34,743 nucleotides of DNA from Zancudomyces culisetae (Eukaryota; Kickxellomycota; Harpellomycetes; Harpellales; Legeriomycetaceae): assembly GCA_001969505.1 (NCBI GenBank), contig LSSK01001695.1, forward strand, positions 1-34,743, given 5' to 3'. The notes under the pieces are model-generated. The model saw nothing but the letters and a program-made list of their open reading frames with translations. It searched no databases and had not been told where the DNA came from. This document shows, in pieces, positions 2,511-9,400 of this stretch. A program made the position numbers and the translations under genes. Each line of letters begins with the position of its first letter. Positions within the stretch are counted from its first letter, which is position 1.

Positions 2511-5323
2511 TCATTCATTAAAAAAATTATCCTGGCGAGACTTTAAAAGTCGTGCTTCATTCATAACCTCTGACTTGAGCCGAACTCTACTTGCTTTTCC
2601 GGCACCAAATGCAAATCTAGTTATTAGATTGGCAGCCGCACCACGGGTTAAAAATAGCGTTGTGTTCTCGGTGGGTGAATCAAGACCCGTTGATTCGTCT
2701 GAATCAACCGGGTCAGTTTCAGTAGGGGATTCGGCTGAGTCTATTTCGATTGTGGTTGTTGTAAATAGAGATTTCGGAGCACCTAATTTAACTAAAAAGT
2801 TTAGCTGCCCTTTGCTGGGAGGTAGATTCCGCCATTTTTGGCCTCGTGAGTAAAGCTTATAGTCAAAGTTAGAGATTTTAGATTTAATGAACGTATCACA
2901 GGCACAGAAAGCCAAGGGAAGCGTGTCGGCTTGAAGAGGAAGTAATATGGGTTTGGATTGCATATGAGAAGGCGAAGGTGAAGGCGTAGCGGAAGTTTTT
3001 TTCTTCAAAAAATAGCGGTAACTGGCGATATACCTTGGTGTTGTAGAGTGATCAAACTGTTCAACAGCTGCCTGCGTGAATATTGTTTGCCTTGTTGCAG
3101 GGGTTATTTGGGGGGTGTTGGAGGCAAGCTTATCTTCAATTGTAACTGATAAACGGGGATGGTTAAATACGTATTTTCCGTTGGGTAAAGCAACCCAGGA
3201 CAATTTTGACCACAGCGCTATACGGGGATCACCAGTAGTCAAAACATCAACGTCATATGGTGAAAAGTGTTTTTTGAAATGTAAACCAAAGTCGTTCATA
3301 TCTCGACGATGCATAGTGAATATGTGGTATGGGTCGAGCAAACGCCTACATATATGCTTGATGCTTGAGAGTGACGGGTGTGATTGTTTATCGGTTACTG
3401 GAATGGAGTAGAACTCTGGTACAGTGTTATCCCTCTTTTTGTTAAAATGCTCGAGAACATCGACATTTTCGATGGTGGTTTTAGGGTCAAGTCCCAGGAG
3501 AGTAGGGATGTTGACCATACTCTTTTTTGAATCAAAGACATCCACAAAATCTACTATCATACAATCTGTTTTATCTTTATGCAGGCGCATTCCACGACCT
3601 ATCATCTGCTGAAACAAAACTGCACTTCGTGTGGGCCTCGCCATTAAAATGCAGTCTATATTTGGTATATCTGTTCCTTCAGTTAAAATCTCACAATTTA
3701 TCAGGACTGGAAAGTATCTTTTCTTAAACTCTTCAAGTAAAACAATTCTATCGTTTTGTGAAGTGTTTCCAAACACAGCCCTCGCATCTACTCCTCTATC
3801 CCGAAATGTCTTTGTCAAATTTCTTGCGTGTTCAACATTTACAGTAAATACCAATGTGGATTCACGTTTTTTCTCCTTAGAATCTCTCGAGAATTCAAGA
3901 TATTTATCCACTATGAGGTTATTTCTGTCGTCATTATCTACAGCTTTTGCAAGAGAGCTGGGATTGAAGTCATCGCCAAGATTTTTTACTGATGTTAAAT
4001 CCACCATTGTTTTAACCATGGTAACTTTTATGGGACAAAGCCAGCCCTCTCTGATCATATCAATAAGGGGCTTGTAGTAAACAATTTTATTAAAAACCGC
4101 ACCCAAAGCAAGCCCGTCATGTCGCTTGAGGGTGGCTGAGCAGCCCCAGATCACCGGTCCTTTTGTCCTTTTTTCTTTAGGTGTACTAACTCCCGGCTCA
4201 TGATCCCCTGTACTTTGAACATTTCCGTTTTCTTGATATTTTGATACAAAGTGTTCAATAACTCTAAGATATGAGCTTGCAACCGCATGATGGGCTTCGT
4301 CTATTATAATACATTTGTAAAGATCTGGGTCGTGCAACGATAACTTTTTCCCGTCTTTTCTTGCCAGTGTTTGTATACTTGTTACTATAACATCCGCAGC
4401 AATACTGGCTTTGCTAATTCCTTGATCAAGATCCACCCGCAAGTCGGGCGCTGCTCGACGGATCTGGCTGCAGGCTTGATAAAGTAGCTCCTTTCTATGA
4501 GCAAGCACCAACACTTTTGTAGCCTGTGGGGTGTCACCCTTGATCTGTTTTATCATGTTGGAAAACACAACCTATATTAATTTTTTTTAATAGTATTCGT
4601 TATTATTGTTTTTTTTTCAATCTATTTTCGAGTTCACAAATGTAGAGCCAGACGTAGACATTATGAGAAAAAGAGTGTGGAGTAACAACCTTTCTCTCTC
4701 CCCTCCCCCCCGTTTATAGACCGTTTAAATTTGAAAATATGATATAGAAACACGAGATACGAAATACGAAATACGCAAATATCATACCGTTTTCCCGCTT
4801 CCTATCAAGTACAGAAAAACAATACAATAATCTGTTAGTCTGGGTTTGAAATCCAAAGTTTTATTTCTATATCTTCTACTAATAATAAAAGCTCAGCATT
4901 ACCCACTGGCAAGGATACAGCAATATTTCTGTACCCCATTTCGATGGCTTCTAGAGACTTGTCGATACATTCTTGCTGGTAGTACCTTAAAGCAGGCCCC
5001 ACTGACGAGGAAGCTACTGTGTTCTTGCTAGAAGAGCTTGGTATGTCGGATTCATTCTCCTGAACGAGTTTTAATTCGGAAAACGAGTTAGAGGTTGTCT
5101 CTGCCCCCAAAGCAGCACTTCGTGTTTTGTGTGAGTTATTAATGTGTAAATTCGCTTTTGAAATAGCGGTAAAAATCATTTTCTTGTAAAACCGTAAAAG
5201 TGGGTACTTATATGTACCCCTACTCCCTATCCAGGAATTCATAAATGGTGTGTTTAGTTCTAAATTTCGCTTTTTTTCTTTTAAAATTGTACAACCCAGA
5301 CCAAGAGCTAGTTTTTTTTGCAC
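2511..5323 (-). CDS. IRC3: IRC3-like mitochondrial DEAD/DEAH-box helicase, three exons with a 14-nt micro-exon
   Basis: Exons on the minus strand: 5323-4903, 4801-4788 (14 nt) and 4571-2511, separated by introns of 101 and 216 nt. The join keeps frame and gives 831 residues. Superfamily 2 motifs run in order: RYYQQECI before the P-loop; Walker A GSGKT at residues 141-145, from the micro-exon; AHRKELL; DEAH at 236-239; SAT at 290-292; and the arginine-finger motif QMIGRGMRLH at 467-476. Yeast Irc3 (689 residues) is a mitochondrial helicase needed for mtDNA stability. The basic, hydroxylated N-terminus before residue 100 suits a mitochondrial presequence, so the same role is inferred. The start at 5323 is the first in-frame Met; Met28 or Met49 are alternatives. 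The C-terminal 300 residues are less conserved and Ser/Thr-rich. Confidence 0.92.
4700..4711 (-). promoter_or_regulatory. G-run motif inside IRC3 intron 2
   Basis: The sense strand of intron 2 carries GGGGGGGAGGGG, 77 nt downstream of the micro-exon. The 11-mer GGGGGGAGGGG recurs at 2481-2491 (just past the IRC3 stop, same strand) and at 34642-34652 (inside the first APL5 intron, sense strand). Intronic G-runs can enhance splicing and AGGGG is the core of the yeast stress-response element. Either role is inference. Confidence 0.4.
4788..4801 (-). other. IRC3: Micro-exon 2 of IRC3, encoding the Walker A GSGKT
   Basis: On the minus strand the sequence reads ...GATAG, then GAAGCGGGAAAACG, then GTATGA. 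Exon 1 ends one base into a glycine codon (ccagtgG followed by GTAATG), and the next exon starts with GTTGTG. Joining them gives V-G-S-G-K-T-V-V-F-S-N-M, the expected helicase P-loop. Skipping the 14 nt breaks the frame and removes the ATP-binding motif. Reading through intron 1 ends the protein after 162 residues. Confidence 0.88.
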
Positions 5324-6423: not shown

Positions 6424-9400
6424 ATGAAAGAATCAGAGCCAGAAAGCAAAGAATACGGTAGAGGAAGGGGTGATGAGAGGAAGAGAGACAGGGAGAGATA
6501 TGAGAGGGGTAGAGAGGATAGGGGTAGAGAGGATAGGGGTAGAGAGGAGAGGAGTAGAGATCGAGATCGAGATAGGGGTAGGGGTAGAAATCGGAGTCAT
6601 AGTAGGAGCAGGAGTAGAAGTAAATCCAAAGATAGAGAAAGTATAACTAGGGCCAAGAACAGAGAATCTCAAGATTCGTCTAAAAATCTACGAGAGGATA
6701 ACAAAGATATCCCGGAAAATGGGAAAAAAGCGCCAGTGACAGTGGAAGAATTCATCGAGATGAAAAAGAACAAGGAAGAGCAAAAAAAACCGGCATTCAT
6801 GAGTCGTAAAGAGAGGGAGAGGCTGGCACTTGAGCGAAGACAAAAACAGTATGAGGAACAGCAGAGATCTAGAGGACTTGAAGAAAATAGACAAAGAGTG
6901 GATGACAGTGGTAGAAAACGCGGAAATGTAAACGACAGTAGAAGTAAAAGCAGGAGCAGGAGTAGGAGTAGGAGTAGGAGTGTAGGCAGAGATAGAGATG
7001 CTAGATATCGTAGAAAAAGTAGAAGTAGAGGTAGAAGTAGAAGTGGCGACAGATATAGGTATAGGCATAGGAACAGAAGCCGAAGCAGAGGTAGAAGCCG
7101 AAGCAGGGGTAGAAGTAGAAGTAGAGAATGGAGAGGGACAAGAGGAAGAGAACAGGAGAAAGACAGAGCGAACGAAAGAGACAGAGCGATGAGGGCCAAA
7201 CTGGAGGAACGAATGCGTGAGCAAGAGGATAGAGCGATAAGGGAGAGGTATATTGGAAGGGAAAAGGAAAAAAAAAAGATTCGTAAAGGGCGAGATAAAG
7301 TTTTTATGTTTGATTGGGATGCCAAGGAGGATACTTCGCAAGATTACAATATGATATATGTAAACAGACACGAACCACAGTTTTTTGGACGTGGGCATCT
7401 GGCAGGATTCGATATAAGGGAGCAAAAGGCCAAGCTTTCAAAATTCTACAGTGAGCATTTGGAAAATAGACGAACGGTGGAAGAGGTGGAGCGAATCAAA
7501 GAGCTAGAGAGAGCCAAGATGGCTAAAGAAAGCAAAGAGCGATATAGTGATCGACACTGGAGCGAAAAGAAGCTGGATGAGATGAAGGAGCGGGATTGGC
7601 GGATATTTAAGGAGGATTTCAATATAAGCTGCAAAGGGGGAGGTATTCCAAATCCTATTAGGACATGGGATGAAAGTGAGCTACCAGAAGAGATACTCCG
7701 CGTGATAAAAAAGATAGGGTATGATCAACCAACGCCAATTCAGCGACAGGCAATTCCTGTAGGGCTGCAGAACCGAGACATCATAGGGATAGCAGAAACC
7801 GGGAGTGGAAAGACAGCGTCATTTCTGATTCCGATGCTGGTATATATCTCGACACTACCAAAGATTGACGAAACTAATATGCAAGATGGTCCATATGCAA
7901 TAGTGCTAGCGCCTACTCGTGAACTAGTACAGCAGATTGAACAAGAGGCGAGCAAGTTTTCGAAATACTTGGGTACAAAGTGTGTTTCTGTAGTGGGAGG
8001 GCATTCATTTGCAGAACAGGGATTTGCTCTGCGTAATGGTGCTGAAATAATCATTGCTACGCCAGGAAGACTGAAGGACTGTATTGATCGAAGAATCATA
8101 GTTTTAAATCAAACCACATGTGTAGTAATGGATGAAGTAAGTTTTTGTGCCATCTGGTTCTGTTCTATAATTAATCTCTATACTTTTATACGTTATATAC
8201 ATGTATATTTACAACATGGTATATGTTGATAGGCCGACAGAATGGTTGATATGGGTTTTGAAGAAGACGTAAATTTCATTTTGGATTCGCTCCCATCATC
8301 ACACATCAAACCAGACACTGAAGACGCTGAAGATGCTTCGAAGATGCTTGAATCCACAATTGGCTCGGTTTTGCGATACAGACAAACTACAATGTTTTCA
8401 GCAACTATGCCGCCTGCAGTTGAACGAATGGCCAGGAAGTATTTAAGACGACCTGCAACAATTACAATAGGTACGGCAGGGCAGGCTGTAGAGACTGTTG
8501 AGCAAAGAGCCGAGTTTGTGAATAGCCTTGATCGGAAAAGGTTTGTGTGCCCATTTGTTTATTTTTGGGGGTCCTGTAAAGAGCAGACAAGGGAGATTGC
8601 TGCAATATTTATAACCATTTACTTTTAATCTTGTATAGACTCCGGCTTTTGGAACTTCTTCAGAACGACTATTCTCCTCCGGTTATTATCTTTGTTAACC
8701 TAAAAAAGACGGCCGATTTGTTGTCCAAGGTTTTATACAAGGAGGGGGTAAGTAATTGTATTTCAGCCAATACTTTTTTGCGTTTTTTATTTTGTTTGGG
8801 GTTGGACGCAATATCGTATAAACAACGTTTAACCAACCATCAATTGACTGTACCAAATAGCACAACTGTGTGGTTCTGCATGGTGGGAAATCACAAGATT
8901 TGCGGTAAAGTTTTTATTTATTTTATATTTTTCACTTATACCACGCTCTTTTTGGCGTTGGAAACAGCCATTGCCCGGTTTAACTATCAAACATAGTATC
9001 AGTGTTAAGGTATATATTTACAAAAACAGAACCAAAATGCTTGAGTGTGCAACATGAATAGTGAATCTGCTCTAATGAAACTAAAAAACGGAGAGGCAGA
9101 CATTCTGGTGGCAACAGATGTGGCTAGCAGAGGAATAGATGTCAAAGATGTATCGCTGGTTGTGAACTACGATATGGCAAAATCGATCGAAGGTAAGTAG
9201 ATATACATACAAATGAATGTGTTGTACCTTTTAGTTTCTTATACGCACTCGTCCAATAGCACCTCTTACATTACTTGTTTTCAAATGGTTTATTTCTATA
9301 ACTGTAAAAATCTAGACTATACACACAGAATTGGTAGAACTGGTAGAGCAGGTAAAACTGGTGTCGCCATAACATTCCTGACAAACGAAGATGCTGATGT

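What the first reader, a model, noticed from the sequence alone, without database searches (positions are those of the whole stretch)
4572..4903. A 14-nt micro-exon carries the ATP-binding motif of IRC3
The helicase P-loop GSGKT is encoded almost entirely by 4788-4801, flanked by introns of 101 and 216 nt. Joins to both sides are exact in frame and restore the family sequence. Skipping gives a frameshift and loss of the Walker A motif; intron 1 retention gives a 162-residue stub. Inclusion of a very small exon thus decides whether a mitochondrial DNA helicase is made, which could be a control point. Automated gene models would probably miss it and split the gene in two.
Basis: partly seen in the sequence, partly recalled or inferred. 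Interest (0 to 1): 0.75.

Follow-up and report, generated by a model that had tools for sequence, protein, structure and literature searches.

The report
Ancient 14-base exon carries helicase P-loop
A 14-base stretch, likely spliced in as its own tiny exon, would supply the ATP-binding loop of a predicted mitochondrial helicase in a fungus that is likely an insect-gut species; the gene's second copy has the same layout, and database gene models from several other fungal groups break at the same spot, which suggests that the tiny exon is old and often missed.

Summary
On the minus strand, exon 1 (to 4903), a 101-nt GT-AG intron, 14 nt (4801-4788), a 216-nt GT-AG intron and exon 3 (4571-2511) join in frame to SLPVGSGKTVVFSNM. 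The genome, Zancudomyces culisetae (inferred), holds a second, 57% identical IRC3 copy with the same layout: a 14-nt exon, same phases, two synonymous differences. Chance is untenable.

The new result is age. Of 176 listed homologs, 37 lack an intact P-loop in their models (my count; a few are partial records), and internal deletions in the conserved core cluster there. The form of broken models in Mucorales, Mortierella, Smittium and Allomyces fits the same intron-1 donor (phase 1) or intron-2 acceptor (phase 0). So the two intron positions likely predate the split of Mucorales and Harpellales.

A 'control point' has no support: no transcript data were available, and the introns of the two copies show no clear constraint beyond splice signals. 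Best reading: a constitutive, obligatory, old micro-exon that annotation keeps missing. Relatives' DNA and existing RNA-seq would settle it.

The parts
4903..5179 (-). IRC3 exon 1 (277 nt from ATG 5179, ends in phase 1 after the first G of the P-loop glycine codon; an in-frame ATG also lies at 5242)
   Evidence: homologous to exon 1 of the second copy
4802..4902 (-). intron 1, 101 nt, GTAATG ... GACTAAC (branch-point-like) ... TTGATAG
   Evidence: the second copy has 108 nt with GTAATT ... AACTAAC ... TTAATAG
4788..4801 (-). 14-nt micro-exon GAAGCGGGAAAACG: with the last base of exon 1 reads G-S-G-K-T (Walker A / P-loop)
   Evidence: second copy GGAGCGGTAAAACG at L002:1294-1307
4572..4787 (-). 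intron 2, 216 nt, GTATGA ... TTAATATAG (no ACTAAC; AATACTATT present)
   Evidence: the second copy has 190 nt
2511..4571 (-). IRC3 exon 3, begins in phase 0 at GTT (V of GSGKTVVF), rest of helicase core and C-terminal region
   Evidence: Helicase_C, ResIII; RadD, 6jde

Best explanation
The 14 nt at 4801-4788 lie flush between an AG and a GT and, joined to one base of the upstream exon, read GSGKT, the ATP-binding P-loop of an IRC3-type (RadD-like) SF2 helicase; they are likely a constitutive internal micro-exon, predicted to be included by sequential, intron-defined removal of a 101-nt and a 216-nt intron. Shown: the sequence and phases, the same architecture in a second gene copy of the same genome, and the clustering of broken homologous gene models at this spot. 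Inferred: that splicing happens as drawn; that the two introns leave one after the other, because 14 nt leave little room for both splice sites to be occupied at once; and that the two intron positions are ancestral to Mucorales and Harpellales at least, perhaps also to Blastocladiomycota. The exon is predicted to be obligatory: every skipped or retained form would end early and lack a working helicase, so the enzyme would exist only when the micro-exon is included. I find no sign that inclusion is regulated.
For: Unique parse giving SLPVGSGKTV. Identical exon-intron layout, phases and 14-nt length in the second copy, dN 0.31, dS 1.42. The spliced residues align with the P-loop of RadD (6jde, E 5.2e-33). 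Internal losses of 4 or more residues: 6 of 136 proteins at the P-loop block, 0 at 11 other conserved blocks among 152 homologs; up to 6 of 148 with all 176. 14 models start at the first Met of exon 3. Four Mucorales models read SLPV|AHR, which under GT-AG rules needs the phase-1 donor of intron 1; Mucor mucedo reads SLPVGN before VIM, like retained GGTAAY; Smittium, Mortierella alpina and two Allomyces models can be read as resuming at the phase-0 acceptor of intron 2. Within Rhizopus delemar two models have GSGKT and two lack it.
Against: No transcript was seen, and no relative's DNA could be read, so age is inferred from failed gene models. 139 of 176 models do have a P-loop, and from those the presence of flanking introns cannot be told; Furculomyces (Harpellales, P0003) is one of them. 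GSGKT codons can contain GGT-type pseudo-donors, so some breaks could be false introns in an open frame. Models from one pipeline or genus are not independent (two Ambispora, two Allomyces, several Rhizopus), and the Ambispora breaks do not end at the intron-2 acceptor. The V at the Smittium and Allomyces junctions can be assigned to either side. Some of the 37 are partial records. Insertions of 3 or more residues do not cluster at the P-loop (1 there; 1, 1, 1 and 2 at four other blocks). IRC3 donors look weak (+5 G in 1 of 4 against 5 of 6 reference introns).
Confidence: 0.8

Rival explanations
1. Regulated micro-exon: inclusion varies with condition or life stage and works as an on/off switch for IRC3, as the first reader proposed and as described for Trichoderma Xlr2.
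For: All skipped or retained forms are predicted dead ends; 3 of 4 IRC3 donors lack G at +5; 19 of 29 nt upstream of the micro-exon are identical between the copies, against a Markov null of 9; a fungal precedent exists (PMC11121469).
Against: The 19 of 29 is not clearly above the 50% identity at four-fold sites (comparison mine); the donor sample is small; no transcript data; no alternative protein would result from skipping.
Confidence: 0.1
2. Lineage-restricted micro-exon: real in Zancudomyces, while the broken models in other fungi come from ordinary annotation errors or independent introns near the P-loop codons.
For: No relative's DNA was read; 139 of 176 models have the P-loop; Furculomyces is intact; pseudo-donors in GSGKT codons are possible.
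Against: Deletions cluster at this block and not at 11 other conserved blocks; 14 Mucorales models start right after it; four Mucorales models need a donor at the same base and phase as intron 1.
Confidence: 0.18
3. Artefact: no micro-exon; the gene is broken or the P-loop string is chance or an assembly error.
For: The database model for the contig lacks exon 1 and the P-loop.
Against: Same architecture in the second copy with dN/dS about 0.22; an AG plus GSGKT string arises in 19 of 200,000 shuffles even without the GT.
Confidence: 0.02

Closest known systems
Trichoderma virens Xlr2 micro-exon (PMC11121469; abstract and passages seen)
   Same: A fungal micro-exon carrying part of the key motif of the protein (two cysteines of the Zn2Cys6 domain, PCRRCE), absent from the JGI gene model, conserved in its lineage.
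   Different: Xlr2 inclusion responds to glucose and skipping leaves a second isoform; conservation is reported for the genus. Here no regulation is known, skipping shifts the frame, and the inferred age is far greater.
Small exons in fungal P450 genes: Phanerochaete (PMC1184071, passages) and the 1-nt exon of Fusarium CYP621A (PMC12940212, title and abstract start in the listing)
   Same: Very small exons that complicate annotation of an enzyme.
   Different: Different gene families; no claim of conservation across phyla in what I saw.
Single-nucleotide constitutive exon of Arabidopsis APC11 (PMC4674806; passages)
   Same: Constitutive exon too small for exon definition; authors propose intron definition combined with recursive splicing, one intron after another.
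   Different: Plant gene, 1 nt, experimentally shown; here 14 nt and untested.
Yeast Irc3, mitochondrial DNA branch-migration enzyme (PMC4872236; passages)
   Same: Same helicase family by homology and by database names.
   Different: The S. cerevisiae gene has no intron (recalled). Biochemistry is shown there and only predicted here.
Bacterial RadD helicase, 6jde
   Same: Residues 64-440 align (E 5.2e-33); GSGKT aligns with GAGKS.
   Different: Bacterial protein; no introns (recalled).

Membership tests
IRC3 / RadD-like SF2 helicase | SF2 helicase core domains | tested here: met
   Spliced protein: ResIII 94.6, Helicase_C 58.5, DEAD 46.3 bits, all above cut-off; RadD match
IRC3 / RadD-like SF2 helicase | Walker A motif GxGK[ST] in the N-terminal helicase domain | tested here: met
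   Only when the 14 nt are spliced in: no one-intron parse has it
IRC3 / RadD-like SF2 helicase | Mitochondrial location and DNA branch-migration activity | not testable with these tools
   Known for yeast Irc3 (PMC4872236, passages); not shown here
Micro-exon (internal coding exon of about 30 nt or less) | Short exon between two introns with canonical borders, in frame on both sides | tested here: met
   14 nt between GT-AG introns, phases 1 and 0, in both gene copies
Micro-exon (internal coding exon of about 30 nt or less) | Presence in mature mRNA | not testable with these tools
   No transcript data; RNA-seq is described in PMC12611240 (passages)
Cross-phylum conserved micro-exon | Same donor phase and acceptor phase at the P-loop in other lineages | tested here: inconclusive
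   Implied by broken models; DNA of other fungi not available
Switch-like regulated micro-exon (Xlr2 type) | Inclusion changes with condition | not testable with these tools
   No expression data

The most novel reading that the evidence does not exclude
The 14-nt P-loop micro-exon of IRC3 dates from before the split of Blastocladiomycota, Mucoromycota and the Harpellales lineage, and was kept because its inclusion is a conserved splicing switch that sets the level of a mitochondrial DNA helicase.
Probability: 0.1. Interest if true: 0.85.

Novelty: new member of a known kind. Interest (0 to 1): 0.55.

Why it matters
If the age claim holds, a 14-nt exon, not a multiple of three and encoding a catalytic loop, has persisted across fungal phyla although every splicing error in it would destroy the enzyme. 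IRC3 would then be a natural test case for how fungal genes handle exons too small for ordinary recognition. It also matters for databases: 37 of the 176 homolog records collected here have no intact P-loop in their models (my count), and a good part of these genes is probably intact. Calls on presence or function of this helicase in early-diverging fungi should be rechecked with the exon modelled.

Tried and rejected
Ab initio intron sets from about 275 kb of the genome were too noisy for a splice consensus: one search found candidates at 20 branch-motif sites against 42 for a scrambled motif. I fell back on six introns placed by hand in the window.

Extra constraint in the flanking introns: 19 of 29 nt identical upstream of the micro-exon (Markov null mean 9.0, p 0.00035), but four-fold sites are 50% identical, so I do not claim it; the longest shared word in intron 2 is 10 nt, equal to the 95th percentile of the null.

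Shared neighbourhood: ORFs of 60 aa or more of the window matched the first 40 kb of C241 only at IRC3 itself, on both strands.

A Rhizopus query gave no relative.

Short motif patterns as a control for other helicase motifs misfire on normal variants; I used the alignment counts instead.

Literature: no IRC3, P-loop or Mucorales micro-exon appeared in the titles and abstract starts listed by searches; searches returned no paper. Full texts were not read for this.

Rows dropped or corrected: one search printed 137 with P-loop, 20 starting after it, 19 absent or broken; P0130 and P0137 visibly carry a P-loop that the pattern missed, so I use 139, 20 and 17. Of the 17, P0123 and P0144 are N-terminal truncations and P0004 and P0139 have unrelated N-termini, leaving 13 models that keep exon-1 sequence. 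P0001 and P0002 (this genome) are among the 176 and among the 37. P0153, P0166, P0168 and P0169 are not in the deletion counts, because their gap runs past the flank test. One search failed and was redone.

Full report
WHAT IS THERE. On the minus strand the window encodes an IRC3-type helicase in three pieces: exon 1 (5179-4903, or from 5242 if the in-frame upstream ATG is used), 14 nt (4801-4788) and exon 3 (4571-2511), separated by GT-AG introns of 101 and 216 nt. The join reads AVSLPVGSGKTVVFSNMI. Of 27 one-intron and 1,271 two-intron open parses (limits in the observation check), one gives SLPVGSGKTV and no one-intron parse gives a P-loop. The spliced protein scores 94.6 bits for ResIII and 46.3 for DEAD; the exon-3 ORF alone, without exon 1 and the micro-exon, scores 54.9 and 22.6 (DEAD cut-off 26), and the exon-1 ORF matches no family. 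Predicted products from ATG 5179: full 783 aa; skipping 104, intron-1 retention 114, intron-2 retention 98 aa (adding the Met).

THE SECOND COPY. The same genome (G000, 23.1 Mb, 859 contigs) has another IRC3 at C241, 57% identical. It has the same two introns (108 and 190 nt), the same phases and a 14-nt exon GGAGCGGTAAAACG. The two differences from the window's 14 nt are synonymous. dN is 0.31 and dS 1.42; 95 of 190 four-fold sites are identical. The database record of that copy, on a contig of the same length (114,186), names the species Zancudomyces culisetae, a Harpellales fungus placed in Kickxellomycota (Zoopagomycota in another scheme, recalled). Its model P0002 lacks the P-loop; the database protein for the window's contig, P0001, starts at MIKQ in exon 3.

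AGE. Three protein searches, each listing the best 120 of 1,258, 1,183 and 1,868 hits, gave 176 distinct proteins, P0001 and P0002 included. In the first 152, internal losses of 4 residues or more occur in 6 of 136 proteins at the P-loop block and in none at 11 other conserved blocks (122-152 evaluable proteins at nine of these blocks, 13 and 58 at two). Insertions do not cluster there. With all 176, sliding windows give up to 6 of 148 at the P-loop; outside it only P0144 (ref 330-344) and P0162 (ref 448-461). 14 models begin at the first Met of exon 3; by their names all are Mucorales (taxonomy recalled). By class, 139 of 176 have a P-loop, 20 start after it, 17 lack or scramble it (two pattern misses corrected by eye). 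P0128 (Podila) has GSGKT but jumps elsewhere directly after it, and P0071 (Thamnocephalis) has an insertion one residue after GSGKT.

WHY THE BREAKS POINT TO THE SAME INTRONS. Four Mucorales models (Rhizopus delemar P0153, Backusella P0166, Circinella P0168, Blakeslea P0169) read SLPV|AHR. The homologs read LAHR there. No leucine codon ends in AG, so a GT-AG intron can end at this place only inside the alanine codon, after its G; the upstream exon must then end with one base, G, directly after SLPV. That is the window's intron-1 donor, phase 1. Mucor mucedo P0154 reads SLPVGN before VIM, as GGTAAY at the start of intron 1 would; both Zancudomyces copies have GGTAAT there. Smittium P0005 and Mortierella alpina P0124 go from RQ[AI] to VIF, and Allomyces P0129 and P0134 from SLP to VVF: these can be read as resuming at the window's intron-2 acceptor, phase 0, although a V at the junction may belong to either side. 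Given phases 1 and 0 and residues GSGKT, the exon between is 14 nt. This is inference from failed models; no relative's DNA was available. Against it: pseudo-donors in GSGKT codons, the two Ambispora models that break nearby but not at this acceptor, an intact Furculomyces model (P0003), and non-independence of models. Within R. delemar two listed models keep GSGKT (P0159, P0161) and two lose it (P0153, P0158), which fits an exon that is there but hard to find.

MECHANISM. Likely constitutive splicing by intron definition, one intron after the other, as proposed for the 1-nt exon of Arabidopsis APC11 (PMC4674806, passages). ACTAAC occurs in 3 of the 4 IRC3 introns and 1 of 6 hand-placed reference introns of 96-157 nt in the window, at least in the 45 nt before the acceptor that I looked at; the 3' ends of both sets are mostly ATAG. 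Donors look weaker in IRC3: +5 is G in 1 of 4 against 5 of 6. The sample is small.

CONTROL POINT? Not supported. Intron identity outside the signals is not clearly above the four-fold-site level. A regulated fungal precedent exists, Xlr2 (PMC11121469, abstract and passages), so the idea is reasonable but untested. RNA-seq for Z. culisetae is described in PMC12611240 (passages).

NOVELTY. Very small exons are known in fungi (PMC12940212 in the listing). My searches (Tried and rejected) listed no report of one in IRC3 or shared across fungal phyla; they cover only the open-licence library, and I judged from titles and abstract starts. I file it as a new member of a known kind whose age, if confirmed, would be unusual.

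Noticed in passing
L002:933-1185 (G000:C241, exon 1 of the second IRC3 copy): The second copy starts MTKEISNQIEKRVDALG, which by eye looks less like a mitochondrial presequence than the window copy (MIFTAISKANLHINNSHKTRS, or MNSWIGSRGTYKYPLLRFYKK from ATG 5242); the copies may differ in location. No targeting program was run.
   Followed up: partly
window 4787-4572 and L002:1308-1497: The introns 2 of the two copies share TAAACGGTCT at the same offset (60 nt from the donor); the length equals the 95th percentile of a shuffle null.
   Followed up: partly
window 8137-9315 (+): A PRP28/DDX23-like DEAD-box gene (name recalled) has five introns placed by hand (96-157 nt) and another small exon of 44 nt, 8861-8904.
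   Followed up: partly
window 9888-9777 (-): A BolA-like gene (name recalled) with a 112-nt intron that has an exact TACTAAC 31 nt or so before its acceptor.
   Followed up: no
proteins P0153, P0158, P0159, P0161 (Rhizopus delemar): Four database models of one species disagree at the P-loop: two keep GSGKT, one skips from SLPV to AHR, one starts after it.
   Followed up: partly
window 6669-7425 (-): Two long antisense ORFs (218 and 245 aa) lie opposite the repetitive R/S/D/E-rich start of the DEAD-box gene; probably by-products of its composition.
   Followed up: no
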